Shown: positions 1 through 12,962 of the stretch, piece after piece
How positions within the stretch are numbered: the stretch's first letter is position 1
Layout: each line of letters opens with the position of its first letter
Source: Methanosarcinales archaeon
GTDB taxonomy: Archaea; Halobacteriota; Methanosarcinia; Methanosarcinales; Methanogasteraceae
Reading direction: 5' to 3'
Assembly: GCA_030609345.1 (NCBI GenBank)
Contig: JAUWCK010000013.1
Span: 1 to 13,073 of the forward strand
DNA: 13,073 nucleotides
Position numbers and translations under genes: made by a program
Notes under the pieces: model-generated
Told to the model about the DNA's origin: nothing
Databases searched by the model: none
The model's input: only the letters and a program-made list of their open reading frames with translations

Positions 1-3000
1 GGTGAAGGTGCTGGAGATCAATCAGTTACAGATCCAGCAACCGACCTTCCACCAGAGAACAAGCCGTACAGCGATCCAGAGGGACCATTCTACCCGCAGC
101 ATCCACAGTCACCAAGAAAGGACTTCATGACGTTCAATCCGGTGATCATGGACCACAACGATAAGGACTTCGATTACGGTATGCTCGACTTCGATTACTG
201 CGAGGACAGCACCAATGTGCAGAGACCAAAGCAGAAGGTCTTCAAGCGGATGTGGTACGAGAAGGACTGGTTCAAGGACGATAACGCTGATGGCGTATGG
301 GACAAGTATGGATCGAGTGTGTGGAACAACGATCCATCCAAGGGTGATACCTACGGACCTGCGATCATGCAGGAGTTCACATACATGTTCCTGAACGATA
401 TCACGATGCCGACGATGATCGAGAGCGGAAGCAGGGTTCTCATACCGATGGCACATGACCCAGCCAATTCGTATAGCGGTCTTAACAGCTTCGATGCAGA
501 TGGCGATGGTGCCAATGATGAACTGAGGGTTGAGAGCGAAGCAACACTTGGTATCGACATCGACCAGGATGGCGACACTGACGTTATGGATGTCGATGGC
601 ACCGAGCTCAGCGGTGATGAGTCCGTTGTGCTGGTGATTGAGAAGAGGCTTGAGATAGGCGAGGAGATACAGCTCTTCGACCACAGGGTGAAGCTGCTGA
701 ATATCTATGGACCGGATGATAGGTCGGCAGACTTCCTCGTATCTGATAACGAGGGTGGATCGAGAAGCGATGTGGAGAACATAGATGAGGATGACTACAA
801 GCTCTTCTATAGGGGCTTGGAAGATGACGATGGAACGACCCTCTACGTGAAGGTAATAGCGGTAGACTGGACAGACTCGCCACATGTGCGTGCAGTGCGC
901 ATTGAGGTCGGAAGGATGTTCGGTCAGACATACGCAAACATCGGAGCGAACATTGACTGGAGCCAGAAGGCGTTCATCGTTGACGGGGTCTTCTACAACG
1001 TGGTTGCGATAAAGGCTCAGGATGACTGCATCAAGTACATCACATTCAGGCAGAAGCTTCCAAAGCTGCCGATCAAGCTCTATGGCGTGCATCTGAAGGT
1101 ATGGGATGAAAATCAGATCCTTCCAGAGATGTCACCATTCAACATGGATCACAAGGTGTGCCAGGATGTGCTGGACTACCAGTTCATACCGTACAATATG
1201 CAGGATAAAATCGGAGACGTATCCAAGATAAAACCGCCACTGGAGATCACATACGTGGAAGAGGCTGTCGAGAAGAGATACTACGGATCGCTTCTTGAGA
1301 TCTACAATGAGACCAGGGTGTGCGAGAACAGTGCGCCGCTCTCTGCTGTTAATGATGTGCAATCATGTACCGAGATCGAGAAGTGGATAATTGAATGGTT
1401 CCACACATATCCGGACCAGTACACAGCATTCAGGCTGCAGCCCGATGAGAGGGTACTTGTAACACTCTCCTGGATTGCGGATGAAGCAGAGACCACGATC
1501 TGGAATGGCGATTCGAGTCAGCCGCTTGCGGTCAATAATGGAGACCGTGTCAAGTTCTGGTACGAAGACTGCACAGGACCACTCTACATCGATGATGCTA
1601 CTGATTCGATCAGGGTCTACGGCACATTTGGTGAAGGAGCTGGAGATCATGATGTTATAGATCCAGCAACAGACCTTCCACCAGAGAACAAGCCGTACAG
1701 CGATCCGGAAGGACCGTTCTTCCCACAGCACCCACAGGCACCGGTAAAGGACTTCATGACATTCAATCCTGCAATCATGGACCACAACGATCCGGACTTC
1801 GATTACAGTATGCTTGACTTCGACCTCTGTGAGGATAGCACCAATGTGCAGCGACCAAAGGAGAAGGTCTTCAAGCGGATGTGGTACGAGAAGGATTGGT
1901 TCAAGGACTACAACATGAATGGATGCTGGGATGTTGTGATCGAGTCCCTGAGCGGTACGTATAAGTACACGATATGCCTTGAGGACTGGAATGCGATCCC
2001 TGAATGGCAGAAGGTCGGTGAGAGAATCAGAGAAGGGAACAACGATCCGGCTATCGGGGATATATATGCCCCATCGATCGTGCAGGAGTTCACATACATG
2101 ACGTTGGATGATATCACGATGCCGATCATGGTCGAGAGCGGAAGCAGGGTTCTCATACCGATGGCACACGATCCGTCCAGTCCGTATAGGGGTCTTAACA
2201 GCTTCGATGCAGATGGCGATGGCGTCAATGATGCACTGAGGGTTGAGAGCGAAGCAACGCTTGGTTTCGACATCGACCAGGATGGACTACCACTTGAGCC
2301 TATGGATGGCGATGGCATCGAGCTCAGCGGCGATGAGTCCGTTGTGCTGGTGCTTGAGAAGAGGCTTGAGATAGGCGAGGAGATACAGCTCTTCGACCAC
2401 AAGGTGAAGCTGCTGAACGTCTATGGACCGGATGTTAGATCGGCAGACTTCCTCGTATCTGATAACGAGGATGGATCGACCTCCAACGAAGTGAACATAG
2501 CCGATGATGGTCGCGAGCTCTTCTCCAGAGCAGACCCAGAAGATGAGGGAACGACATTCTACGTAGAGGTTAAAGCGGTAGACTGGACGAATGACCCGGG
2601 CACGCGTGCAGTGCGCATTGAGGTTGGAAGGATGTTCGGTCAGACATACGCGAACATCAGAGCAAACGTTGACTGGAACCAGAAGGCATTCATCGTTGAC
2701 AAGGTCTTCTACAACGTGGTTGCGATAAAGGCGGATGGTGACTGCTTCAAGTACATCACATTCAGGCAGAAGCTTCCAAAGATGCCGATCAAGCTCTATG
2801 GAGTGCACCTGAAGGTATGGGGCGAGGGCGAGCTGCTACCAGAGATGGCACCGTTCTGCGAGGACCACAAGATACTGGTAGACATACTCAAGACACACCC
2901 CAGACCATCTACGCAGCAGGATAAGATCGGCATGCAGGTCGGAAGACCGCCACTTGAGATCACCTACGTGGAAGAGGATACCGAGGAGAGATTCAGCGGA

Positions 3001-4833
3001 TCGCTTCTTGAGATCCTTGATGAGTATGGTGACGGTGCAGATACTGACTGCTGTGATGACGAAGATGCGATCGCCGCCGGAGTGGCATGGCTGGCAGCCC
3101 AGCAAAATGCCGACGGATCATGGGGAACGACCTATGAGGTTGGCACAACTGGTCTTGTTGTACTGAAGTTAGAGGAGTATGCAAGAGAATTGGGAATGTC
3201 GCCCTTCGACCCGGCCTATGCATACTCGGATGAAGTTCAGGACGGACTTGACTATATCTTCAGCCAGTCAACTATCATAGACATCAGCGTACAGCCCGCG
3301 GGTGACCCGGATGGTGACGGTGACGGTCAGGGCGTATATATGGACTCAGGACAGAACCGCAGGAGTTACGAGGCAGGCATAGCAGCAATGGCTATCGCAG
3401 CAGGTGGAGAACCGGACAGAGTGGTGAATGTTGCCGGCAGCGCTGTAGATACATGGACATACGGACAAGTTATGCAGGATGTCGTGGACTATCTGGCATG
3501 GGGTCAGACAGACTCCGGAAATGGACGAGGTGGCTGGAACTACAATGAAATGGACAATTCAGGACCCAGAAGCGATAACTCCATCTCAGGATACGTGGTG
3601 CTGGGTCTCGGCTATGCCGAAGCGGCTCCGCCCAACGGATTCGGATTGACCATCCCGCAGTTTGTCAGGGACGAGCTGAACATCTGGATCGATTACATCC
3701 AGAACGATGTAACTGGAGATGCGGATGATGGTGGTTCTGGCTACACCACTCCTGGCCAATGGGTCAACATCCTCAAGACGGGCAACCTGCTCTATGAGAT
3801 GAAATTTGTCGGCGATACGGAAGACACCCCAAGAGTACAGCACGCAGTCGACTATCTTGTGAGACACTGGAACGATGCCAACCCCGATCCTGGGTGGAGA
3901 GGAACAGCAGTGACAGGAGCCCACAAACAGTCCATGTACTGCACGATGAAAGGGCTTGAATCCCTCGGCATAGAAGAGATCGACGGAATCGACTGGTACT
4001 GCGATGACTTCTGCCCGGTGCTACTTGCCGAGCAGAACGCCGATGGATCGTGGAATCTTGATATGTATGGCGATCAGAACCTGGCTACAGTGTGGGCTCT
4101 GCTCACGCTGGAAAAGGCAGTCCCCGTGCAGCTGGAAGCAAAAGAGCGCTGGACACTCGAATGGTTCCACACATATCCGGAGCAGTACACAGCATTCACA
4201 CTGCCAGAAGGAGAACTCTACCTGATGACTCTTGCATGGTTCGCACCTGAGGCAATGACCGAGATATGGGATGGTGATTCAACCGGATCAATTGCCAGCT
4301 ACACTGGCGATCGCGCCAAGTTCTGGTATGACCCGGCAGATCAGACAGACATCTATATCAACAGGATCCCCGCACATGAGCCAGATCAGCCTGACCTGGA
4401 CATCACAGAGGTCATATGTCCGGACAACGGTGAGATCAGCTACACGGTGAAGAACAACGGCGACGCAGCTGCTGGAGCATTTGATGTGAGCATCGAAGCG
4501 ACAGGCGTCAGCGAAACCGACAGCATCACTGGACTTGCAGCAGGTGTAAGCGTTACCAGAACCGTTGCTGTTGACTGCGTTGAGACCGGATACACGGTCT
4601 GTGCAGATTCGGGCTATGCTGTGACTGAGAGCAACGAGGCCAACAACTGCATGAACTCAGGATCGTGCACGTGTGACTGGAACACATGGAACGACGACTG
4701 CGTCATCAGTGATGATGAGATATCCAATGCAGAGTATTATTGGGCAACCAACACCCCAATAAACGGACACATCATCACTGACCCGGAGATCAGCTCGCTT
4801 GAGTATCAGTGGGTGACCGGCGACGTCTGCTAG
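1..4833 (+). CDS. Giant S-layer-like surface protein, 5'-partial, with inserted terpenoid-cyclase-like barrel
   Basis: The frame is open from base 1, so the start lies upstream; 1610 residues are visible. Residues 1-42 are the Pro-rich tail of an earlier unit (GEGAGD...DLPPENKPYSDPEGP), which recurs at 1630-1755. Two units begin MTFNP at residues 43 and 586. They share DSTNVQRP, KRMWYEKDWF, QEFTYM, VESGSRVLIPMAHDP, Ca-loop-like DADGDG and DIDQDG, GRMFGQTYANI, FRQKLPK and EWFHTYP. Unit 2 is split by an alpha-barrel of prenyltransferase/squalene-cyclase repeat type (about 1019-1380, QNADGSW twice). A CARDB-like domain (about 1461-1558) and a 52-residue Cys-bounded C-terminal module follow. There is no C-terminal membrane helix, no CXXCH haem motif and no obvious DXDD cyclase acid motif, so I read the barrel as structural or binding. 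An S-layer or sheath role is inferred from size, acidity and tandem architecture; I do not recognise a named family for the MTFNP unit. Confidence 0.85.
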   Translation, partial: GEGAGDQSVTDPATDLPPENKPYSDPEGPFYPQHPQSPRKDFMTFNPVIMDHNDKDFDYGMLDFDYCEDSTNVQRPKQKVFKRMWYEKDWFKDDNADGVWDKYGSSVWNNDPSKGDTYGPAIMQEFTYMFLNDITMPTMIESGSRVLIPMAHDPANSYSGLNSFDADGDGANDELRVESEATLGIDIDQDGDTDVMDVDGTELSGDESVVLVIEKRLEIGEEIQLFDHRVKLLNIYGPDDRSADFLVSDNEGGSRSDVENIDEDDYKLFYRGLEDDDGTTLYVKVIAVDWTDSPHVRAVRIEVGRMFGQTYANIGANIDWSQKAFIVDGVFYNVVAIKAQDDCIKYITFRQKLPKLPIKLYGVHLKVWDENQILPEMSPFNMDHKVCQDVLDYQFIPYNMQDKIGDVSKIKPPLEITYVEEAVEKRYYGSLLEIYNETRVCENSAPLSAVNDVQSCTEIEKWIIEWFHTYPDQYTAFRLQPDERVLVTLSWIADEAETTIWNGDSSQPLAVNNGDRVKFWYEDCTGPLYIDDATDSIRVYGTFGEGAGDHDVIDPATDLPPENKPYSDPEGPFFPQHPQAPVKDFMTFNPAIMDHNDPDFDYSMLDFDLCEDSTNVQRPKEKVFKRMWYEKDWFKDYNMNGCWDVVIESLSGTYKYTICLEDWNAIPEWQKVGERIREGNNDPAIGDIYAPSIVQEFTYMTLDDITMPIMVESGSRVLIPMAHDPSSPYRGLNSFDADGDGVNDALRVESEATLGFDIDQDGLPLEPMDGDGIELSGDESVVLVLEKRLEIGEEIQLFDHKVKLLNVYGPDVRSADFLVSDNEDGSTSNEVNIADDGRELFSRADPEDEGTTFYVEVKAVDWTNDPGTRAVRIEVGRMFGQTYANIRANVDWNQKAFIVDKVFYNVVAIKADGDCFKYITFRQKLPKMPIKLYGVHLKVWGEGELLPEMAPFCEDHKILVDILKTHPRPSTQQDKIGMQVGRPPLEITYVEEDTEERFSGSLLEILDEYGDGADTDCCDDEDAIAAGVAWLAAQQNADGSWGTTYEVGTTGLVVLKLEEYARELGMSPFDPAYAYSDEVQDGLDYIFSQSTIIDISVQPAGDPDGDGDGQGVYMDSGQNRRSYEAGIAAMAIAAGGEPDRVVNVAGSAVDTWTYGQVMQDVVDYLAWGQTDSGNGRGGWNYNEMDNSGPRSDNSISGYVVLGLGYAEAAPPNGFGLTIPQFVRDELNIWIDYIQNDVTGDADDGGSGYTTPGQWVNILKTGNLLYEMKFVGDTEDTPRVQHAVDYLVRHWNDANPDPGWRGTAVTGAHKQSMYCTMKGLESLGIEEIDGIDWYCDDFCPVLLAEQNADGSWNLDMYGDQNLATVWALLTLEKAVPVQLEAKERWTLEWFHTYPEQYTAFTLPEGELYLMTLAWFAPEAMTEIWDGDSTGSIASYTGDRAKFWYDPADQTDIYINRIPAHEPDQPDLDITEVICPDNGEISYTVKNNGDAAAGAFDVSIEATGVSETDSITGLAAGVSVTRTVAVDCVETGYTVCADSGYAVTESNEANNCMNSGSCTCDWNTWNDDCVISDDEISNAEYYWATNTPINGHIITDPEISSLEYQWVTGDVC
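127..1755 (+). repeat. Surface-protein repeat unit 1 (543 codons)
   Basis: This unit runs from MTFNPVIMDHND to the codon before the next MTFNP, exactly 1629 bases, and is uninterrupted. Its body holds the DSTNVQRP, SGSRVLIPMAHDP, DGDGAND, FDHRVKLLN and GQTYANIG blocks. It closes with EWFHTYPDQYTAF, a beta-rich stretch, and the Pro-rich linker (1630-1755). The same linker occupies 1-126, showing that a further unit ends at the window edge. Confidence 0.9.
1756..4370 (+). repeat. Surface-protein repeat unit 2, interrupted by alpha-barrel
   Basis: This is the second copy of the MTFNP unit. It has about 30 extra residues after KDWFKD (around 1915-2040). It is split after the GSLLEIL block (about 3020): a roughly 360-residue alpha-barrel is spliced in before ERWTLEWFHTYPEQYTAF (4147 onward). 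The flanking unit sequence resumes with clear similarity to unit 1. Confidence 0.88.
3055..4140 (+). other. Terpenoid-cyclase/prenyltransferase-like alpha-barrel domain inserted in the surface protein
   Basis: The region encodes helical repeats with glycine/tryptophan turns: AWLAAQQNADGSWG near the start, GRGGWNYNE in the middle, PDPGWRGTAVTGAHKQSMY, and LLAEQNADGSWNL near the end. The QNADGSW pattern is typical of the prenyltransferase/squalene-oxidase repeat superfamily (alpha6-alpha6 toroids). Proteins of this fold include cyclases, prenyltransferase beta subunits and thioester domains of complement-like proteins. I see neither a DXDD acid motif nor a CGEQ thioester motif, so enzymatic activity is not supported. 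Confidence 0.75.
4675..4830 (+). other. 52-residue two-fold Cys-bounded C-terminal module (copy A)
   Basis: The module reads DWNTWNDDC, then two half-repeats (VISDDEISNAEYYWAT and IITDPEISSLEYQWVT) joined by NTPINGH, and ends GDVC at the stop. The two halves resemble the paired helices of a dockerin but lack the DxNxDG calcium loops. A cysteine sits before the first half and another is the last residue, which would suit a disulphide clasp. A closely matching copy ends the broken gene at 11036-11194. Confidence 0.75.
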
Positions 4834-4847
4834 AGAATAAAAGATAT

Positions 4848-4872
4848 TGGATGTGTTTTAATAACACATCCA
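4848..4872 (+). terminator. Perfect 10-bp stem hairpin after the giant surface-protein gene
   Basis: TGGATGTGTT pairs perfectly with AACACATCCA across the 5-base loop TTAAT, 15 bases after the stop codon. The following sequence is AT-rich rather than a pure T-tract. It may end or stabilise the upstream mRNA. It lies 29 bases before the next start codon, so partial read-through is possible. Confidence 0.55.
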
Positions 4873-4901
4873 GTATTTAATTTATTTCAAGGAGAACTAC
4901 C

Positions 4902-7199
4902 ATGAAAACAAGTAAAATGGCCATAAATATGTTGATGGCAACGGCGGTGATATGCCTGGTCTTCATGATGGCGCCAGCAGCATCTGCACAAACCATCACA
5001 GGCGACCGGACCATTGATCCCACGAGTCTGCCAGCAGGCGATACATTCAGGGTGACTGTTGATGTGACCATAGCCGGCACAGTCTTCGGTCCAGTACTGA
5101 ATGAAGACGTCCCGCCGGGATGGGCTGTGACAGAAGTTGCCAATGCTGGAGCCACCTACAATGCTGGTGAGACATCGTGGCTCTGGAGCGGCACACAGAC
5201 CGCCGGTACGAAGACGGTTATCTATGATGTCACAGTACCAGCCGGCACAACGCCTGATGACTATCCAGTGACTGGAAAGGTCCTGGCAACCGTCGGTGGA
5301 AACACAATCGGCCCATTTGATGTAACCGGTGACAATCAGGTGACCGTTACAGGACCGCAGAACATCGCAGGCGACCGGACCATCGATCCCACGAGTCTGC
5401 CAGCAGGCGATACAGTCAGGGTGACCGTTGATGTGACCATAACCGGCACAGTCTTCGGTCCAGTATTGAATGAAGACGTCCAGCCGGGATGGACTGTGAC
5501 AGAAGTTGCCAATGCTGGAGCCACCTACAGTGCTGCTGAGACATCGTGGCTCTGGAGCGGCACACAGACCGCCGGTACGAAGACGGTTATCTATGATGTC
5601 ACAGTACCAGCCGGCACAACGCCTGATGACTATCCAGTGACTGGAAAGGTCCTGGCAACCGTCGGTGGAGAAACGATCGGCCCATTTGATGTAACCGGTG
5701 ACGATCAGGTGACCGTTGAGTCGACCATTCCCCCAGACGTAACCGTCATCTATCCGAACGGCGGTGAGACTCTGAGCGGCACTACGATCAATGCGAGTGC
5801 AACAGACACCGATGGGACCATCGCGAGTGTGGTCTTCTCATACTCTCCGGACGATGGAGCGAGCTGGACCCTGCTCGGAGCTGGAACTCCTGCTGGAGGC
5901 GACATCTACGAGTATGACTGGGATACAACGACCGTTGCAGACGGCGACCAGTACCTGATCAGAGCACTGGCAACAGACGATGAAGGTGCAACAGACGTTG
6001 ACGAATCGGATGCTGTGTTCACGGTCTTCAACGAAGACCCACCAGAACCCCGCATCACAACTCCAGCTGATGGATCCACCGTCAGCGGCGTATCATCAAT
6101 CGTAGCGGTGGATGACAGCGGTGAAGGCGATATCGCCTACTGCCTGTTCGAGTGCTACAATGATACGAACTGCAACTGCATCGAAGACGACGTTGGAAGC
6201 GTATGGATTGAGGTGTACAACGACACCGATCCAGCCGGTGGATGGAACTTCACAGGTGACACAACAGAGATTCCAGACTGCTGCCATATAATCAGGGTGA
6301 CGATGGTTGATGGAATCGGTCAAACCGGATCAGATCAGATCAACGTGAATCTGTCGAACCACGACCCAGTGCCAAATATAACAGCTCCAAGTGATGGAGC
6401 CACTATATCTGGTAGCGTGATCGTAAACGCGGTCGATGAGAGCTTTGAATCCGGAGCGGACATTGTCTACTGCCTGTTCGAGTACTACTATGACGAGAAC
6501 TGCAACTGCGCTGAAGACGATGGAAACGAATGGGTCGAGTTATACAACGACACCGATGGATGGAGCACCGAATGGGACATGCTCCCAGGCGGAGTAGCAG
6601 CACATCCGGACGGTTGCTATATGATCAGAGCAACGATGGGTGACGTGCACGGCAGAAACGGATCAGCTGAGATCAACGTGAATCTATCGAACCCTGACTT
6701 CTGCCTCGACCTCAAGGAAGGTTGGAACTTCGTCTCGATCCCGAAGCGCATCAACGGCTCGAATGGAGCGGTTGGCATATTCAATCTGGTACAGGGCGAG
6801 ACCTGCCTGTATTACGACGGATGTGCAGAAGGATGGCTGAGCAACCATGACATCTATGTTGTACCATGCCAGGGCTACTGGGTATACAAGGACGCGGATG
6901 AAAAGATCTGTGTGTACTTTGACCCGGGAACCGGGCAAAGCGTCCCACCATCACAGAATCTCTGTGAGGGATGGAACATGATCGGTCACATAGACACGAG
7001 TCTCATGCCAATCAATGACAAAACCATTGCAGACTTCGGTTCGATCACAACGATCGAGGGCAAGTTTGCACAGGTATGGCAGTGGACGCAAGACGACTAC
7101 TATAAGTGCTATCCGCTTGGTGGATTTACCCACATGACCCCGGGACAGGGCTACTGGATCCTGATGAAGAAAGACGCCACGATGTACGGAACACTGTAG
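4902..7199 (+). CDS. Secreted multidomain surface protein with two TR-I-like domains and GWN/GYW C-terminal domain
   Basis: The ATG follows AAGGAGA, and a signal peptide runs to about residue 29 (APAASA|QT). Two near-identical beta-sandwich domains (31-153, 154-276) carry the VFGPVLNEDV, GATY, SWLWSG and VIYDVTVPAGT blocks. Next come an Ig-like domain (277-379) and two Cys-rich repeats (380-486, 487-597) with NCNC followed by EDD. A C-terminal domain (598-765) has the pattern GWNFVSIP...GYWV...GWNMIGH...GYWILM, which is common in archaeal extracellular proteins. Several N-glycosylation sequons (NDT, NLS, NGS) are present. No membrane anchor is visible, so attachment would be through other envelope proteins. 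Its beta-sandwich domains match those of the minus-strand genes at 9520 and 10367. Adhesion or S-layer assembly is inferred; no enzyme motif is seen. Confidence 0.88.
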   Translation: MKTSKMAINMLMATAVICLVFMMAPAASAQTITGDRTIDPTSLPAGDTFRVTVDVTIAGTVFGPVLNEDVPPGWAVTEVANAGATYNAGETSWLWSGTQTAGTKTVIYDVTVPAGTTPDDYPVTGKVLATVGGNTIGPFDVTGDNQVTVTGPQNIAGDRTIDPTSLPAGDTVRVTVDVTITGTVFGPVLNEDVQPGWTVTEVANAGATYSAAETSWLWSGTQTAGTKTVIYDVTVPAGTTPDDYPVTGKVLATVGGETIGPFDVTGDDQVTVESTIPPDVTVIYPNGGETLSGTTINASATDTDGTIASVVFSYSPDDGASWTLLGAGTPAGGDIYEYDWDTTTVADGDQYLIRALATDDEGATDVDESDAVFTVFNEDPPEPRITTPADGSTVSGVSSIVAVDDSGEGDIAYCLFECYNDTNCNCIEDDVGSVWIEVYNDTDPAGGWNFTGDTTEIPDCCHIIRVTMVDGIGQTGSDQINVNLSNHDPVPNITAPSDGATISGSVIVNAVDESFESGADIVYCLFEYYYDENCNCAEDDGNEWVELYNDTDGWSTEWDMLPGGVAAHPDGCYMIRATMGDVHGRNGSAEINVNLSNPDFCLDLKEGWNFVSIPKRINGSNGAVGIFNLVQGETCLYYDGCAEGWLSNHDIYVVPCQGYWVYKDADEKICVYFDPGTGQSVPPSQNLCEGWNMIGHIDTSLMPINDKTIADFGSITTIEGKFAQVWQWTQDDYYKCYPLGGFTHMTPGQGYWILMKKDATMYGTL
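4992..5360 (+). repeat. 369-bp tandem repeat, copy 1 (beta-sandwich domain)
   Basis: This is the first of two directly adjacent 123-codon copies. Long stretches are identical to copy 2 at base level, including the parts encoding PTSLPAGDT, SWLWSGTQTAGTKTV and TTPDDYPVTGKVLATVGG. This indicates recent duplication or gene conversion. Confidence 0.93.
5361..5729 (+). repeat. 369-bp tandem repeat, copy 2 (beta-sandwich domain)
   Basis: This is the second 123-codon copy, differing from copy 1 by scattered substitutions (for example VPPGWAV against VQPGWTV, and YNAGET against YSAAET). No indel separates the copies. Confidence 0.93.
6039..6692 (+). repeat. Two diverged Cys-rich Ig-like repeats with NCNC motif
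   Basis: Two protein-level repeats (6039-6359 and 6360-6692) each start P-[IT]-TAP-[SA]-DG and share YCLFE, an NCNC segment followed by EDD, W[IV]E[VL]YNDTD, and end INVNLSN. The acidic residues around NCNC resemble a metal-binding loop, and the cysteines could pair. Function is unknown. Confidence 0.75.
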
Positions 7200-7270: not shown

Positions 7271-7954
7271 ATGAAAGAAAACAAGAATACAACTGGAACG
7301 ATCTGGATATTGATCCTTCTTTCGATCCTCTTAACACTATCAGGGATGGTAGTGACGGTGTCGGCAGAGCTTCCCACTCCACCAAATCAGTTCTACGGGA
7401 CTGTGACAATTGATGGCGAGCCAGCACCTGCTGGAACCATCATCACTGCTTACATTGATGGAGACCCCATAGAAAGCATTGAAGTTACAACAGCAGGTGA
7501 ATATGGTTCCGATCTGAACTATCTGGAGGTTGCTGGCAGCGAATCTGATGTGATAACCTTCAGGGTAAGTGGATCCGATGAGACGGGAACTATTGTATGG
7601 GGTCTGTATGAGAAGCCGCGAGAACTCGATATAGGAGAGCCACCTGTTGGAGCAACGCCTACAGATACGCAGGACTCATCACCGGGTGGTGCAGCGGGCG
7701 GCGCCGGTGGAATATCGAGACCGGGAGCGTTACCGACCGTAACACCGGACGGGACAACGTCAGCACCTGATGAGGGTGTGACACCGGATTCCCCGGAAGC
7801 AACGGAGACTTCTACGGAAGTGCCCACATCAACCACAACAGATGAATCTCGATCGGGAGGGATTCTTACAGGATATGGATTGATGCTTGTAATTATAGTT
7901 GCGATCATAGGATTGCTTGTGGTGATATATCTGGGCATGAGAAAGAGAGAATGA
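7271..7954 (+). CDS. Membrane-anchored surface protein: PNQFYG domain, Thr/Pro stalk, C-terminal helix
   Basis: The 227-residue protein starts at an ATG seven bases after an AGGTGAT ribosome binding site. A signal peptide (about 1-33, ending VSA) precedes a beta-rich domain (about 34-122) with the archaeal pattern PPNQFYGTV.I.GE.APAGTIITAYI and GEYG.DLNYL. Residues about 128-195 are a Gly-rich then Thr/Ser/Pro-rich linker suited to a glycosylated stalk. A hydrophobic helix (about 203-221) and MRKRE tail follow, typical of a C-terminal anchor with the basic side in the cytoplasm. The next gene begins 26 bases later and carries a paralogous domain without the anchor, so the pair is probably one operon. 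The exact ligand or partner cannot be read from sequence. Confidence 0.85.
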   Translation: MKENKNTTGTIWILILLSILLTLSGMVVTVSAELPTPPNQFYGTVTIDGEPAPAGTIITAYIDGDPIESIEVTTAGEYGSDLNYLEVAGSESDVITFRVSGSDETGTIVWGLYEKPRELDIGEPPVGATPTDTQDSSPGGAAGGAGGISRPGALPTVTPDGTTSAPDEGVTPDSPEATETSTEVPTSTTTDESRSGGILTGYGLMLVIIVAIIGLLVVIYLGMRKRE

Positions 7955-7964
7955 CTAAGTTTGT

Positions 7965-7973
7965 AAAGGAGGG
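7965..7973 (+). promoter_or_regulatory. Ribosome binding site fixing the start at 7981
   Basis: AAAGGAGGG lies seven bases before the ATG at 7981. The alternative ATG at 7951 overlaps the previous stop, lacks this spacing, and would add residues before a normal signal peptide. Confidence 0.85.
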
Positions 7974-7980
7974 AATATTC

Positions 7981-8847
7981 ATGGAACAAGGTGAAAAAAC
8001 GAGAATGATCAAGGCATTGACCATTCTTTCGATCCTTTTGGCAATATCTGGGATGGCGGCAATAGCATCAGCGTTTCCGTCCCCACCGAATCAGTTCTAC
8101 GGGACTGTTATGATCAATGGTGAAGATGCACCCGCCGGAACCATCATCACTGCTTACATCGGTGATGAACTCAGAGGGAGCATCGAGATTGGAACAGCAG
8201 GTGAGTATGGTTACGATCTGAACTATCTGGGCGTCACTGGCGGCGACTCTGACAACGGCAGGACGATAATCTTCGAGGTAGCTGGAATTCCGGCAAACGA
8301 GAATGATGTTGCATGGAACTGGTACGCGGTTCCGCGAAGACTCGATCTAACCGTTGGAGATTGTGAAGCGCCTGTGGTGTCCGATCCATCTGCAAACCCA
8401 CCATCGATATCAGTAGATGGGCTACAGACCTCACAGCTGAATGTGACGGTCACGGACAACGGCGCGGTTGGCATCGTCACCGTTAACCTGTCAGAGATCG
8501 GTGGACCTGAAGCGCAGGTGATGGAATACATCGGCGATGATGTATACTCCACAACCACGAATGCATCCGTGGACACCGTGCCAGGCACATACTGTCTGCC
8601 AGTCAATGCGAGCGATATTGCGGGCAACTACAATGACAGCGTTTGTATACCGCTGGCAATCAGCGATTGGAAAGATGAGTGGATGGGCCCTGGGTCTGAG
8701 GGTGGTGCTAAGGTTACCACGTCCGAACTTCAGGTGGCTGCTAACTGCTGGCTTGATGGAACGCCAGTGAGAGGGCACGTATTAACCGCCGCAGATTTCC
8801 AGCTGATACTCGCTGCATGGTTGTCAGATAGTGGAGCCTACGCGTGA
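7981..8847 (+). CDS. Secreted paralogue with PNQFYG domain, Ig-like domain and dockerin-like tail
   Basis: The 288-residue protein begins MEQGEKTRM; a signal peptide ends near IASA|FP. The first domain (about 39-130) parallels that of the upstream gene (PPNQFYGTV, APAGTIITAYI, GEYGYDLNYL). A second Ig-like domain (about 135-223) has several N-glycosylation sequons (NVT, NLS, NAS twice, NDS) and a Cys pair (TYCLPV, SVCIPL). The last 45 residues contain two half-repeats, KVTTSELQVAANCWLDG and HVLTAADFQLILAAWLSD, joined by TPVRG. They resemble the two halves of the module at 4675 and of dockerins, but without a Ca loop. With no membrane anchor, I infer it attaches through this tail or through its membrane-anchored partner. 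Confidence 0.85.
   Translation: MEQGEKTRMIKALTILSILLAISGMAAIASAFPSPPNQFYGTVMINGEDAPAGTIITAYIGDELRGSIEIGTAGEYGYDLNYLGVTGGDSDNGRTIIFEVAGIPANENDVAWNWYAVPRRLDLTVGDCEAPVVSDPSANPPSISVDGLQTSQLNVTVTDNGAVGIVTVNLSEIGGPEAQVMEYIGDDVYSTTTNASVDTVPGTYCLPVNASDIAGNYNDSVCIPLAISDWKDEWMGPGSEGGAKVTTSELQVAANCWLDGTPVRGHVLTAADFQLILAAWLSDSGAYA
8710..8844 (+). other. Divergent two-fold dockerin-like tail (no Ca loop)
   Basis: The pattern [VL]T-x2-[ED][LF]-x5-W repeats twice around TPVRGH, aligning with TPINGH between the halves of the 4675-4830 module. The terminal Cys pair of that module is absent; a single Cys sits inside the first half. Confidence 0.5.
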
Positions 8848-9037: not shown

Positions 9038-9069
9038 ATCTCACTGGTGCAACATCTCACTGGTGCAAC
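9038..9069. repeat. Perfect 16-bp tandem duplication
   Basis: ATCTCACTGGTGCAAC occurs twice without spacing (9038-9053 and 9054-9069). The second copy overlaps the last codons and stop of the transposase remnant, suggesting that a deletion or insertion event ended that frame here. Confidence 0.9.
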
Positions 9070-9488
9070 GTTTCAAATCCTTCTTTCTTCCGCATTTCTT
9101 CTGTGAGCAATGTAAGTGACCATTTCTTGCTTCCATCTGGCGATTTGGTGCATGCTTGCACTATGATTTCTGCAACGTGTTTTTCTGCGTACTTTTTGGG
9201 CTGACCGGGTCTTAGTTTTTCTGTTAGGGCGCTTTGGAGACCTTCTTCGCGGTATCTTTTCTTGATTCTCCAAACGGCGTTCCTGCCAACACATAATATT
9301 TCTGCTATCTCTGTGTCCTCTTTTTGCTGGTTTGCCAGCAGCAGAATACGTGCTCTGGTTAGCTCTCTTGCACTTTTTCGTCCCTTTTTCACAAAGCCCC
9401 TGAGGAGCTTTAGCTCATCCGCTTCAAGTTTTATCTCTACTATGAAGACATTATTATAGTATTCAAAGGTTATTAAATTGTTCCAAAA
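9057..9488 (-). pseudogene. IS630-family transposase, N-terminal helix-turn-helix remnant
   Basis: The minus frame is open from 9488 to the stop at 9057. It encodes IKLEADELKLLRGFVKKGRK, then ARILLLA, EIAEILCVGRNAVWRIKKRY and GQPKKY, the helix-turn-helix region typical of IS630-type transposases. After WSLTLLTEEMRKKEGF the frame ends at the 16-bp duplication. The DDE catalytic domain, normally about 200 further residues, is absent from either strand nearby. There is no ATG in the frame: the first usable start is GTG at 9392, inside the conserved N-terminus. I conclude it is a truncated, inactive element. It sits between two convergent surface-protein clusters. I found no convincing terminal inverted repeats. 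Confidence 0.82.
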
Positions 9489-9519: not shown

Positions 9520-10203
9520 TTATTTGATTTTCCTGTATATATAGACTGCTGCAAGCCCGATCAATGCCATAACTGCCCCCAATCCAGGTTGGGCTGGTGT
9601 CTTGGCTTGCACTGGTGCCGCTGCTGGTGTTTCTGTAGCGGCGACCGTGGGGGTGGTCGCTGTTGCGGTCTGCGTCGGACTGGTCGTCATGTTGGCTGTT
9701 GGGGTAGATGTTGTGGTGCCACCGTTACTGGTTATGGTTGATGTTGGTGTTCCCGTAATAATGGTTATGCTGTTGTCACCAGCCACATTGAATGGTCCAA
9801 GCGTACTTCCTGCATCAGTAGCTAAGATCGTTCCAGCAATCTGGTAAACTCCTTCCTCTGTGTTTGAAGGCACAGTAACATCATACACAACTGTCTTTGG
9901 TTCACTCTGAGCACCCCCCCAGAGCCAACGCGTCTCAAGAGAATTATAGGTGGCTCCTGCATTCTCGATCTCTTCAACATTCCAGTCTGTTAAAATACTC
10001 TCATTCAGAACAGGACCATAGACTTCTCCGTCCATATTTATCTGTACCGTCACTGTAAATGCCCCACCCTGTGATATGGTTGTAGGAGTGATGGTTCTTG
10101 TAGCTGCAATCGTATTTTCTGCCAGCACTGGCGTTACCCCGGCAAAGACACAACATAGTATCACGAGAGCCGCTACGATTCCATGTACTTGATTCTTTTT
10201 CAT
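9520..10203 (-). CDS. Secreted TR-I-like protein with Thr-rich stalk and PGF-CTERM-like tail
   Basis: The protein has 227 residues. The ATG at 10203 is chosen because AAGGAGG precedes it and a signal peptide (MKKNQVHGIVAALV..., cleaved near VLA|EN) begins there. Residues about 30-150 form one beta-sandwich domain (ATRTITPTTI, VYGPVLNES, GATYN, RWLWGGAQ, VVYDVTVP). It is paralogous to the next upstream gene and to both repeats of the plus-strand protein at 4902. A Thr/Ser/Pro/Ala stalk (about 152-202) follows. The tail PAQPGLGAVMALIGLAAVYI then RKIK matches the plan of PGF-CTERM signals processed by archaeosortase, with PGL in place of PGF. I infer it is fixed at the cell surface, perhaps through lipid attachment. 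No catalytic motif is seen. Confidence 0.87.
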   Translation of the reverse strand: MKKNQVHGIVAALVILCCVFAGVTPVLAENTIAATRTITPTTISQGGAFTVTVQINMDGEVYGPVLNESILTDWNVEEIENAGATYNSLETRWLWGGAQSEPKTVVYDVTVPSNTEEGVYQIAGTILATDAGSTLGPFNVAGDNSITIITGTPTSTITSNGGTTTSTPTANMTTSPTQTATATTPTVAATETPAAAPVQAKTPAQPGLGAVMALIGLAAVYIYRKIK

Positions 10204-10209
10204 GGTAAT

Positions 10210-10216
10210 CCTCCTT
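10210..10216 (-). promoter_or_regulatory. Ribosome binding site fixing the start at 10203
   Basis: Read on the minus strand, AAGGAGG lies six bases before ATG 10203. It rules out the longer frame from 10311, whose first 36 codons run through duplicated promoter sequence. Confidence 0.85.
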
Positions 10217-10235
10217 ATTGCATACGATGTGCGTT

Positions 10236-10243
10236 TATTTAAA
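10236..10243 (-). promoter_or_regulatory. TATA-like box of the 9520-10203 gene
   Basis: TTTAAATA on the minus strand lies 33 bases before the ATG, placing a start site about 25 bases on, just before the ribosome binding site. It is conserved in the duplicated block upstream of the neighbouring gene. Confidence 0.55.
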
Positions 10244-10261
10244 TGTAACCCACATACATTT

Positions 10262-10297
10262 TTAACACACATCACCGGTTGCCCACTGGTATTCAAG
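10262..10297 (-). pseudogene. Vestige of the Cys-terminal module (last 11 codons)
   Basis: On the minus strand this stretch encodes LEYQWATGDVC and TAA, the exact ending of the modules at 4675-4830 and 11039-11194. Similarity stops directly upstream, so only the tail of a lost gene or a duplicated segment remains. It precedes the promoter of the 9520-10203 gene, just as the intact tail at 11036 precedes the promoter of the 10367-10975 gene. Confidence 0.85.
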
Positions 10298-10366
10298 TAA
10301 TCTGGTGTCACGGTTGTTTGAAATTCATAGACGTCTATAGCATGATAGTCCCTGGCGCGGCGGGAT

Positions 10367-10975
10367 TCATAAATCTATATTCCCGGCTGCCGCCTGCAGC
10401 ATCATGAACGCGTCGAGGGATGTCACCTTACCATCACCGTTCACATCTGCTTCATCTGCGACAGGAATCGCTCCGACCGCCATCAGGAGTGCGATGACCG
10501 CATCTGCTGTGGTGATTGCTTCACCGTCTGTAACAGTTAGTTCATCATCACCGGTTACTTCAAATGGACCAATCGTTTCTCCACCGACGGTTGCCAGGAC
10601 GGTTCCTGTCACGGGATTGTTGCCAGGCGCTGTGCCGGCTGGCACTGTGACATCATAGATAACCATCTTCGTACCGGTCTGTGCACCGCTCCAGAGCCAC
10701 TTTGTCGCATCAGCATTGTAGGTTGCTCCAGCATTGGCAACTTCTGTCACAGTCCATCCCACCGGAAGAGTCCCATTCAGCACCGGACCATAGACTGTGC
10801 CGGTTATGGTCACATCAACGGTCACCCTGAATGCATCGCCTACATTCACACTCGTGGAGTTGATGGTCTGGTTGCCTGCGATGGTATCTGCTGCAGCTAC
10901 TGCTGGTGTCAATGCTGCAAAAACCGATAGCACCATGACAGCCGTCAACAATCCAAACATTTGTTTCTTTTTCAT
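10367..10975 (-). CDS. Secreted TR-I-like protein with C-terminal dockerin
   Basis: The 202-residue protein starts at ATG 10975 after AAGGAGG. A signal peptide ends near AVAA|AD. Residues about 30-150 are the shared beta-sandwich (VYGPVLNGTLPVGW, VANAGATYNA, KWLWSGAQTG, VIYDVTVPAGT, VGGETIGPFEVTGDD). Residues 157-202 form a dockerin: ITTADAVIALLMAVG, then the EF-hand-like DVNGDGKVTSLDAFMMLQ, which is the classic Ca-binding F-hand followed by its helix. The first half lacks a full Ca loop. Dockerins bind cohesins. I recognise no canonical cohesin in the window, so the partner is unknown, although the beta-sandwich itself is a candidate for self-assembly. It is a paralogue of the downstream gene, which has a membrane tail instead, giving a soluble/anchored pair. 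Confidence 0.88.
   Translation of the reverse strand: MKKKQMFGLLTAVMVLSVFAALTPAVAAADTIAGNQTINSTSVNVGDAFRVTVDVTITGTVYGPVLNGTLPVGWTVTEVANAGATYNADATKWLWSGAQTGTKMVIYDVTVPAGTAPGNNPVTGTVLATVGGETIGPFEVTGDDELTVTDGEAITTADAVIALLMAVGAIPVADEADVNGDGKVTSLDAFMMLQAAAGNIDL
10370..10507 (-). other. Dockerin domain
   Basis: About 46 residues end the protein: a first half-repeat ITTADAVIALLMAVG and a second, DVNGDGKVTSLDAFMMLQ. The second half has Asp/Asn/Asp at Ca-ligand positions 1, 3 and 5, with Gly at 6. Confidence 0.8.
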
Positions 10976-10979
10976 AGTT

Positions 10980-11072
10980 CCTCCTTATTGCATACGATGT
11001 GTACATTTATTTAAATGTAACCCACACATACATTTTTAACACACATCACCCGTTGTCCACTGGTATTCAAGC
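10980..11072 (-). repeat. Duplicated module-tail/promoter/leader block, copy 2
   Basis: This is the second copy, spanning the ribosome binding site (10980-10986), the TATA-like box and the final codons and stop of the upstream broken gene. Here the module tail is attached to a full-length module. Confidence 0.9.
11008..11015 (-). promoter_or_regulatory. TATA-like box of the 10367-10975 gene
   Basis: TTTAAATA on the minus strand sits 33 bases from the ATG, the same distance as in the paralogous gene. This implies a short leader of roughly 10-15 bases. Confidence 0.55.
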
Positions 11073-11194
11073 AAGCTGATCTCTGCGTCTGTTATGGTGT
11101 GTCCGTTTATTTGAGTGTTGGTTGCCCAATAATATTCTGCATTGGATATCTCTGAATCACTGATGACGCAATCGTCGTCCCATGGGTTCCAGTC
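11039..11194 (-). other. 52-residue two-fold Cys-bounded C-terminal module (copy B)
   Basis: DWNPWDDDC is followed by half-repeats VISDSEISNAEYYWAT and TITDAEISLLEYQWTT joined by NTQINGH, then GDVC and stop. By hand alignment about 25 of 159 bases differ from 4675-4833, although the two host genes are otherwise unrelated and lie on opposite strands. Confidence 0.75.
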
Positions 11195-11475
11195 TGGCGG
11201 ACTGTAAGTGACCATCACCGATGTTTCCTTTGTGTTTCCTGAAGTGTCGGTTGCTCTGGCATAGATCGTATTTGAGCCAGAAGCAAGGATTACAGATTTA
11301 CTCCACGAGGTTGTTCCGGATGCGATCTGCCAACTTCCATATCCAACCCTCACTTCCCACTTTGCTCAGACCAACATTGTCTGATGCGCTTCCGCTAACG
11401 GTTATGGAAGCAGTTGTGAGTGTCTGTCCGTTTGTTGGGTATGAGATGGAGATCATTGGATCGGTTGGTGTTGAA

Positions 11476-11770
11476 ACAGTGGGTCCAGAAGATGTTCCTG
11501 AAGTAGGCAGTCTCTTTGTGTGACCATGCCCGTCATCGAAATAGAAGTAATAATTGTGGCTTCCTGCCGAAAGGGTTGTTGAATACTTGAACATAGCACC
11601 TGACGTGTAATCTCCGCTTATCTTTGTCATCATGTGTGGAAAACCATCCACATAGACGTACTTCGTTGTTGGAGTATCTCCATCGGAATCTGTGTAGGTG
11701 ACGTAATAATTGAAGGTTGTGGACGTATCACCAGATGATGGGTTTACAGAACCGCTTGAGAGGGTTGGTG
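11476..11770 (-). repeat. 312-bp-period repeat, copy 1
   Basis: The repeat encodes PTLSSGSV.PSSGD.STTFNYY, then VDGFPHMMTKISGDYTSG and DDGHGHTKRLPTSGTSSGPT. It is almost identical in bases to copy 2, whose start lies 312 bases away. Confidence 0.93.
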
Positions 11771-11787
11771 GTTGGTTTGGTGTTAAT

Positions 11788-12082
11788 ACAGTGGGTCCAG
11801 AAGATGTTCCTGAAGTAGGCAGTCTCTTTGTGTGACCATGCCCGTCATCGAAATAGAAGTAATAATTGTGACTCCCTGCCGAAAGGGTTGTTGAATACTT
11901 GAACATAGCACCTGACGTGTAATCTCCGCTTATCTTTGTCATCATGTGTGGAAAACCATCCACATAGACGTACTTCGTTGTTGGAGCATCTCCATCAGAA
12001 TCTGCGTAGGTGACGTAATAATTGAAGGTTGTGGATGCATCGCCCGATGATGGAGTTACAGAACCGCTTGAGAGGGTTGGTG
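11788..12082 (-). repeat. 312-bp-period repeat, copy 2
   Basis: This copy differs from copy 1 by only scattered bases (for example YADSDGDAP against YTDSDGDTP). The near identity in an otherwise broken gene suggests recent duplication or conversion. Confidence 0.93.
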
Positions 12083-12962
12083 CATTGTTCGGAGCAGAAC
12101 CCGTTGTGAAATCCCAGAGAGATCCTGAGGTGGATGCACCGTGATTGTCGGTTGCAGTGATCTTCCAGTAATATTTTGTGTTGTAGCTCAGTGTACCTGG
12201 ATCATGGGTCGTTCCTGACTGATCGTTAGAAACCAATGGTGGGCTTGTGCTGGTTCCGAAGAAGACATCGTATTTTACAGTATCGCCAGTATCAGGATCT
12301 CCGCCGGTCCAACTCAAATCAGCATTGATAGACTGACCGGTTGCGTGATTTGATGGTGAGGGGTTGCTCGGTGTATTTGGTGCGTTGTTTGGATTTAAAG
12401 AATAAACGATGCTCCTTGCATCAGGATAATTTCCCACAATAAAATATTCTGTTGCTTCTTCAACCGTTCCATGCCCGATAGCGAACTGATCGACCGTTAC
12501 TAAGTAACTCGGCTTTGTATCACAGGTAAATCGATGTGCTGCCCATTTTGGAGTATGATCTGGACTATAAAGTGTTAGACCAAAATCCAAGCCATTTACA
12601 AATGACGCCCAATATTCAGTGGGATAAAATTCTGTATTTGGGGTCCCGGGGTCAGTTTGTGGTATGCTAAACTCATTTACTCCATCATTTGTCCATGGAT
12701 TACTATTGGTATATGTAATTAATCGATAAAGTTGTGTATTAATATAAGCACAGGGAAACTCCTGATCGTGAAATGTATAGGTATCAGTTCCGAAATGTGT
12801 AAACTTATACTGGACTTTAACAGATTGCCCTTCCAGAGAAACCCACTGCTCAACATAGGTATCGGTCAGTACTCCTGTTTTCCAATCCCTCGGATGAGTT
12901 TTTGTATAAATCAGGTTTGCTCCTTCATTGTGATTGTGATTTCCCGAAATGATTTCGCCCTA

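What the first reader, a model, noticed from the sequence alone, without database searches (positions are those of the whole stretch)
4675..4830. A possibly undescribed two-fold, Cys-bounded C-terminal module
The 52-residue ending has an internal two-fold repeat (VISDDEISNAEYYW / IITDPEISSLEYQW). One Cys precedes the first half and one is the final residue. It looks like a dockerin in which the Ca loops were replaced by a disulphide clasp. It ends unrelated proteins here, as expected for a docking or sorting tag.
Basis: partly seen in the sequence, partly recalled or inferred. Interest (0 to 1): 0.8.

Follow-up and report, generated by a model that had tools for sequence, protein, structure and literature searches.

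The report
Disulphide-type dockerin-like C-terminal docking tag
A probably archaeal microbe ends several otherwise unrelated secreted proteins with the same tiny two-helix tag, which resembles the dockerin plugs of cellulosomes but appears to be closed by a disulphide bond, so it is probably a plug that holds these proteins on the cell surface.

Summary
The last 52 residues of the gene ending at 4833 contain a two-fold repeat (0 of 2000 shuffles as good), with Cys at module residues 9 and 52; a second copy ends another gene at 11039. The "copy" at 10262 is a ~13-residue DNA remnant. No Pfam or NCBIfam model covers the module. Database searches found 11 proteins of this type, all C-terminal, on papain-like, matrixin, FG-GAP, SdrD-B, LTD and CARDB bodies. 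A sister type without the Cys pair ends window gene 7951-8847 (pairwise hhalign E 2.5e-7). Of 17 modules 11 have both Cys, 6 neither, 0 one. The AlphaFold2 model has two main helices; Foldseek's six best PDB matches are dockerins, but all with E >1, and sequence homology to dockerins was not detected. In this window paralogues carry either a membrane-type or a docking-type end. Best reading: a dockerin-like surface-docking tag without canonical Ca loops, stapled by a disulphide. The bond and the docking are inferred; the partner is unknown, the neighbouring beta-sandwich domain a candidate. New variant of a known kind.

The parts
4675..4830 (+). Module copy A (52 aa), C-terminal end of gene A; identical residue for residue to the end of P0001
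4702..4743 (+). First half of the two-fold repeat (VISDDEISNAEYYW); helix of the model at module residues 13-25
4771..4812 (+). Second half of the repeat (IITDPEISSLEYQW); helix of the model at module residues 36-48
4699..4701 (+). First Cys codon (module residue 9; Gly in P0005 and P0006)
4828..4830 (+). Terminal Cys codon (module residue 52; absent in P0005 and P0006)
11039..11194 (-). Module copy B, 85% identical to A (32 identical codons, 12 synonymous, 8 nonsynonymous)
10262..10304 (-). DNA remnant of a module end plus stop, not attached to a gene body; part of a duplicated junction
8665..8844 (+). Sister-type module without the Cys pair (DWKDEWMGPGSEGGAKVTTSELQVAANCWLDGTPVRGHVLTAADFQLILAAWL...) ending gene C; it has one Cys at another place
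1..4833 (+). Gene A, runs in from before the window: two copies of an unnamed surface domain, a weak squalene-cyclase-like stretch (below cut-off), CARDB, then the module
7271..7954 (+). Paralogue of gene C with a C-terminal hydrophobic segment and basic end instead of the module
7951..8847 (+). Gene C, same N-terminal domain as 7271-7954, sister-type module at its end
4902..7199 (+). Gene directly after copy A: signal-like N-terminus, two copies of the beta-sandwich domain (4995-5348, 5364-5717), further repeats
10367..10975 (-). Gene directly after copy B: signal-like N-terminus, one beta-sandwich domain (10882-10532), dockerin-like end (PF00404 22.7 bits, cut-off 22.9)
9520..10203 (-). Gene after the module remnant: same beta-sandwich domain (10110-9760) with a PGF-CTERM-like end (17.9 bits, cut-off 18.8)

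Best explanation
A dockerin-like C-terminal docking module of secreted surface proteins, probably archaeal. Shown here: an internal two-fold repeat, placed at the very end of proteins with N-terminal hydrophobic (signal-like) segments and unrelated bodies, with two Cys that are both present or both absent. Predicted: two main helices in a dockerin-like arrangement. Inferred: after export the Cys near the start and the Cys at the end form an intramolecular disulphide that ties the two ends of the module together, doing covalently what the Trp/Tyr-Pro clasp does in some bacterial dockerins, and keeping a module without canonical Ca loops folded; the folded module then plugs, by its repeated EIS..EY.W helix faces, into a beta-sandwich receptor on the cell surface. 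The beta-sandwich domain encoded by the next gene after both copies (and after the remnant) is the best candidate receptor, but nothing here shows binding.
For: Two-fold repeat beyond chance. C-terminal in 17 of 17, on at least six body types. All 15 proteins returned by the searches (P0012 is the window's gene C) have an N-terminal hydrophobic segment (maximum 2.14-3.46) and none a strong C-terminal one (0.05-1.15). Both-or-neither Cys, 11/6/0; three changes on a tree of 15 distinct modules with Cys masked, bootstrap 5-95% range 3-3. Model pLDDT 87, helices 13-25 and 36-48; Foldseek ranks 1-6 of 9 are dockerin chains of five different dockerins. Paralogue pairs in the window differ at the C-terminus: 7271-7954 hydrophobic end against 7951-8847 module; 9520-10203 PGF-CTERM-like end against 10367-10975 dockerin-like end. 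Tail + next gene's beta domain is similar in DNA at both copies (77% over 689 columns); that domain's model (pLDDT 95) has 12 cohesin chains among its 38 Foldseek matches at E<=0.001. Papers: end-to-end clasp in dockerins (PMC4728124, PMC5864761, passages read).
Confidence: 0.55

Rival explanations
1. A sorting signal: the tail is read and removed or joined to the surface by a dedicated enzyme, in the manner of PGF-CTERM/archaeosortase or the Bacteroidetes type IX C-terminal domains (comparisons recalled), and does not dock by itself.
For: Strict C-terminal place on unrelated secreted bodies; paralogues carry membrane-type ends in its place.
Against: No strong hydrophobic segment in the module; it is predicted as a compact two-helix domain; no invariant short motif at the very end, which varies (VC, VCS, VCF, GGV, GIV in the Cys-type family).
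Confidence: 0.15
2. A covalent tether: the terminal Cys is free and makes an intermolecular disulphide with a surface partner or a second tagged protein.
For: The Cys is the last or next-to-last residue in all 11 modules that have it, where it would be exposed.
Against: The two Cys are present or absent together, as expected for a pair within one module; modules without them end the same kind of proteins.
Confidence: 0.1
3. A folded end-cap that only stabilises or protects the C-terminus, with no partner.
For: Small, probably disulphide-closed, conserved over different bodies; no partner is demonstrated here. Its conservation is hardly higher than that of the adjacent CARDB segment in two of three comparisons (83 against 80% in P0002, 81 against 81% in P0011; 100 against 90% in P0001).
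Against: The repeated helix faces (8-11 of 14 positions identical between the halves in the Cys-type family) suggest a binding surface; a mere cap would not be expected to stand where paralogues have membrane-type ends.
Confidence: 0.15
4. Mainly a DNA-level effect: the tail and the next gene's start are a duplicated block used as a landing place for swapping gene bodies, so the tail's spread says little about its function.
For: Tail + following gene start is repeated at 4675-5352 / 11194-10528 (77%), and tail end + junction at 10304-10155.
Against: Between A and B 12 codons differ synonymously and 8 nonsynonymously, and sister-type modules only 19-33% identical keep the pattern: protein-level selection. 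A papain-like and a matrixin protein carry it on other contigs.
Confidence: 0.05

Closest known systems
Dockerin modules (type I, PF00404) of cellulosomes and of ANME archaea
   Same: About 50-60 residues, C-terminal, two loop-helix halves with internal repeat, acidic residue at the end of each loop (position 12, 17 of 17); dockerins are the six best fold matches. ANME genomes carry many dockerin and cohesin proteins (PMC9012536, PMC5244752, passages read).
   Different: No Pfam dockerin hit, second loop without Ca ligands at 1, 3, 5 in 16 of 17, halves 23 residues apart (30 in the window's own dockerin-like end), P-[IV]-x-G-H link, Cys pair; no detectable sequence homology.
Intramolecular clasp of dockerins (N-terminal Trp with C-terminal Pro in R. 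flavefaciens ScaA; Tyr5-Pro66 in another type-I dockerin; a 'unique intramolecular clasp' in the double dockerin dDoc_0689)
   Same: Ties the N- and C-terminal ends of the module together (PMC4728124, PMC5864761, PMC12484212, passages read; the original Slutzki 2013 paper is not held).
   Different: The first two are stacking or contact clasps; here a disulphide is inferred. Engineered disulphides between cohesin and dockerin exist (title seen in the reference list of PMC12484212), but those are intermolecular.
PGF-CTERM / archaeosortase surface anchoring
   Same: C-terminal, found on different secreted bodies; a below-cut-off match ends 9520-10203, a full match ends the L001 protein (27.1 bits).
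   Different: Hydrophobic segment plus basic end; the module has neither.
Cohesin domains
   Same: The beta-sandwich domain next to the modules has cohesins among its best Foldseek matches.
   Different: Other Ig-like sandwiches match as well or better; no Pfam cohesin hit at E<=1 in the window genes or at E<=0.1 in L001.

Membership tests
Dockerin type I (PF00404) | Match to the family profile | tested here: not met
   0 families at E<=1 for the 52-aa module; none of 9 members matches it at E<=10 (HMMER's filters drop most matches above 0.1)
Dockerin type I (PF00404) | Two duplicated loop-helix (F-hand) segments | tested here: met
   Two-fold repeat and predicted helices 13-25, 36-48
Dockerin type I (PF00404) | Two 12-residue Ca-binding loops with D/N at 1, 3, 5 | tested here: not met
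   Cys-type family: first loop has T or P at 1 (13 of 13), D/N at 3 and 5; second loop has none at 1, 3, 5 except Glu at 5 in P0006 (loop rule recalled)
Dockerin type I (PF00404) | Dockerin fold | tested here: inconclusive
Dockerin type I (PF00404) | Detectable sequence homology to dockerins | tested here: inconclusive
   hhalign probability 2.0 and 0.6 against only three dockerin rows
Dockerin type I (PF00404) | Specific binding to a cohesin | not testable with these tools
   Needs a binding experiment or complex prediction
PGF-CTERM sorting signal | C-terminal transmembrane segment with PGF and basic end | tested here: not met
   Kyte-Doolittle maximum (19 residues) in the last 60 residues is 0.05-1.15 for the 17 module-bearing ends, against 3.15 for 7271-7954 and 1.69 for 9520-10203 (the dockerin-like end of 10367-10975 reaches 1.98, so the scale alone does not decide); no family hit for the module
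Cohesin (for the neighbouring beta domain) | Cohesin fold, in preference to other Ig-like sandwiches | tested here: inconclusive
   12 of 38 chains at E<=0.001 are cohesins, but an adhesin domain ranks first there and integrin, pilin and adhesin domains reach higher Z
Disulphide pair | Both Cys present or both absent | tested here: met
   11 both, 6 neither, 0 single of 17 modules (9/6/0 of 15 distinct)
Disulphide pair | Short Cys-Cys distance in the model | not testable with these tools
   Coordinates are not released (one search lists no model file)

The most novel reading that the evidence does not exclude
A separate archaeal plug-and-socket system: a disulphide-clasped, largely Ca-independent dockerin analogue in at least two specificity classes (EIS..EY.W with the Cys pair; ELQ..A...W without), docking onto the beta-sandwich domains encoded by the adjacent genes, working beside ordinary dockerins and membrane anchors in the same cell to build the surface of a probably methane-seep archaeon.
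Probability: 0.25. Interest if true: 0.75.

Novelty: new variant of a known kind. Interest (0 to 1): 0.5.

Why it matters
ANME archaea are rich in dockerin and cohesin domains whose role is open (PMC9012536, PMC5244752, passages read). A tag that neither Pfam nor NCBIfam covers means that part of such a surface-assembly system may have been overlooked. It marks which proteins (proteases, adhesin-like proteins) may share one surface scaffold, gives a directly testable receptor candidate, and, if the disulphide reading is right, offers a Ca-independent docking tag as a tool.

Tried and rejected
Chance repeat: rejected for A and B. Known domain under another name: no Pfam or NCBIfam match; no PDB sequence relative (the few weak matches are antibody heavy chains). 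Antibody-like and Argonaute PAZ_3 (E 0.072) matches: taken as chance. The 10262 'third copy': rejected as a gene end.

Searches that found nothing: genome contigs with the first module alignment; viral contigs five times; plasmids and phages by tblastn with the module (with the sister type and the 10367-10975 protein, gave only weak matches, E 0.1 at best); genome G001 with the module alignment (no positive control). Genome contigs with the beta domain gave one locus, L001. The window's own genome is not held, so copies per genome and the organism are unknown. A first script on L002/L003 printed nothing. The phrase set dockerin-like / cysteine / calcium-independent found 0 papers; the searches listed no paper whose title or shown start of abstract describes this module; passages were read in five papers of these lists (PMC9012536, PMC5244752, PMC4728124, PMC12484212, PMC5864761) and in PMC5539420, the rest were seen as listings only. 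'Undescribed' rests on these searches and the two domain libraries.

The database counts are lower bounds: the two searches with the Cys type covered only proteins of about 885-2817 and 520-1655 residues that share exact words, the sister-type search about 164-521. The 32-residue core spacing is imposed by the pattern used; that all 17 fit it is the only information. P0012 is gene C of the window itself. Two of the 17 modules repeat another (P0001 = copy A, P0010 = P0008), leaving 15 distinct; the tree used these 15 with every Cys, not only the pair, set to X.
Full report
Observation. The module at 4675-4830 is real and in frame at the end of gene A, followed by a stop codon. Its two halves match at an offset of 23 residues with score 48; 2000 shuffles of the same 52 residues reached at most 33. 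Copy B at 11194-11039 is 85% identical, with 32 identical codons, 12 changed synonymously and 8 nonsynonymously, while the 120 nt upstream show no similarity (27%).

Distribution. Pfam and NCBIfam have nothing for the module. Two searches of about 5.8 billion proteins with the ends of gene A and of P0003 gave 3 of 6 and 10 of 17 candidates, two of them shared, so 11 different proteins P0001-P0011. One with the end of gene C gave 4 of 14 candidates, of the sister type, of which P0012 is gene C itself. Each of the 17 modules (copies A and B, P0001-P0015) lies at the C-terminus, 3-8 residues after its last Trp, once per protein. Bodies include papain-family protease + lectin-like + PKD (P0005), matrixin (P0009), FG-GAP (P0003), SdrD-B repeats (P0007, and P0008 and P0010 by precomputed domains), Lamin-tail domain (P0006) and CARDB (A, P0001, P0002, P0011); P0004 has no Pfam match. 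P0001-P0015 all have a hydrophobic N-terminal stretch (maximum 19-residue hydropathy 2.14-3.46) and no strongly hydrophobic C-terminus (0.05-1.15); the N-termini of A and B are not in one open frame of the window.

Two types. The sister type in gene C and P0013-P0015 shares invariant W2, W5, E15, A19, W23, H32 and W46 with the Cys type (9 sequences), at 19-33% identity, and pairwise profile comparison gives probability 93.4, E 2.5e-7. The link P-[IV]-x-G-H between the halves is common to both, with Q for P in copy B and P0004 and E for G in P0006. The internal repeat is weaker in the sister type (26, 23 of 2000 shuffles as high, for gene C; 35, 1 of 2000, for P0015).

The Cys pair. Eleven of 17 modules have both Cys, six have neither and none has one (Fisher p 8e-5, not corrected for kinship; 9/6/0 of 15 distinct modules). 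Other Cys occur (one in helix 1 of P0012-P0014, one beside the first Cys in P0007) and were not counted. Within the Cys-type family, P0005 and P0006 have Gly for the first Cys and end just before the last. On a tree of the 15 distinct modules with all Cys masked, the both/neither label needs three changes, also in the 5%-95% range of bootstrap trees; but well-supported branches alone force only one, and 30 of 500 label shuffles needed as few. Paired gain or loss is what a disulphide predicts. In EF-hand numbering (recalled), the first Cys stands at position 6, Gly in P0005 and P0006; all 13 modules of this family have T or P at position 1, D/N at 3 and 5 and E at 12 of the first loop. The second loop has no D, N or E at 1, 3 or 5 in 16 of 17 modules; P0006 has Glu at 5. 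So the disulphide cannot simply have replaced two Ca sites, although a weak first site in the Cys-free form is possible.

Neighbours. The gene after copy A (4902-7199), the gene after copy B (10975-10367) and the gene after the remnant (10203-9520) all have a hydrophobic N-terminus and carry one or two copies of a 117-118-residue domain, 50-92% identical to the copy at 5364-5717. Its model is confident (pLDDT 95): a beta-sandwich, with 12 cohesin chains among 38 Foldseek matches at E<=0.001, the first match being an adhesin CLIPPER domain, and with integrin, pilin and adhesin domains above cohesins by Z (13.5 against 11.7). In this window C-terminal ends differ between paralogues: 7271-7954 (hydropathy 3.15 at the end) and gene C (module) share their N-terminal domain (local alignment 85 of 202 columns identical); 9520-10203 (PGF-CTERM 17.9 bits, cut-off 18.8) and 10367-10975 (Dockerin_1 22.7 bits, cut-off 22.9) are 77 of 157 identical. 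The hydropathy scale alone does not separate the second pair (1.69 against 1.98). Membrane-type end, dockerin-like end and module thus look like interchangeable ways of holding a protein at the surface; this is inference.

Source. The one locus with a related beta domain, L001, is a 3.1 kb contig with a PGF-CTERM protein (27.1 bits, over cut-off) and an acylphosphatase, filed in the MAG Desulfuromonadales C00003107, one of the genomes of a study of methane-seep bacterial partners of ANME archaea (PMC5539420, passages read). That it is archaeal DNA misplaced in a bacterial bin, and that the window is from an ANME-like archaeon, is inference. ANME genomes are known for many dockerin and cohesin proteins of open function (PMC9012536 and PMC5244752, passages read).

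Mechanism. Shown: a conserved two-fold C-terminal module on unrelated, probably exported proteins, with paired Cys. Predicted: a two-helix dockerin-like fold. Inferred: a disulphide tying the ends together outside the cell, comparable to the Trp-Pro or Tyr-Pro clasp of some dockerins (PMC4728124, PMC5864761, passages read); docking onto a surface receptor, perhaps the neighbouring beta-sandwich domains. 'It works like a dockerin' is the claim (0.55); 'it is a dockerin' is not claimed, since the profile and the Ca loops fail.

Noticed in passing
window 11298-12590 and 11036-11353 (-): Gene B is split between two reading frames near 11300-11350; both pieces show Ig-like (Big) matches, so this is either a real frame break or an assembly error.
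   Followed up: partly
window 323-1302 and 2036-3015 (+): Gene A holds two copies of an unnamed surface domain, 82% identical in DNA over 990 columns; P0001 has two as well and P0002 two divergent ones (by reading).
   Followed up: partly
window ~2881-4140 (+): Gene A carries a stretch with weak squalene-cyclase-like matches (below cut-off) that is 72% gaps against P0001, which has a Cys-rich stretch near there (by reading): a domain exchange between similar flanks.
   Followed up: no
window 11457-12082 (-): Two tandem copies of a 314-nt repeat, 95% identical, in gene B.
   Followed up: no
window 9057-9392 (-): ORF with helix-turn-helix matches over cut-off (HTH_23, HTH_32, HTH_29), resembling the N-terminal part of a transposase (recalled).
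   Followed up: partly
L001 (MAXT01000383.1): Contig with a PGF-CTERM surface protein bearing the beta-sandwich domain, in a MAG labelled Desulfuromonadales; likely archaeal DNA and a binning error.
   Followed up: partly
window 4820-4900, 10980-11035, 10204-10261: Junctions tail - short intergenic - signal-like start recur at three places; the tail end with the next gene behaves as one duplicating block.
   Followed up: partly
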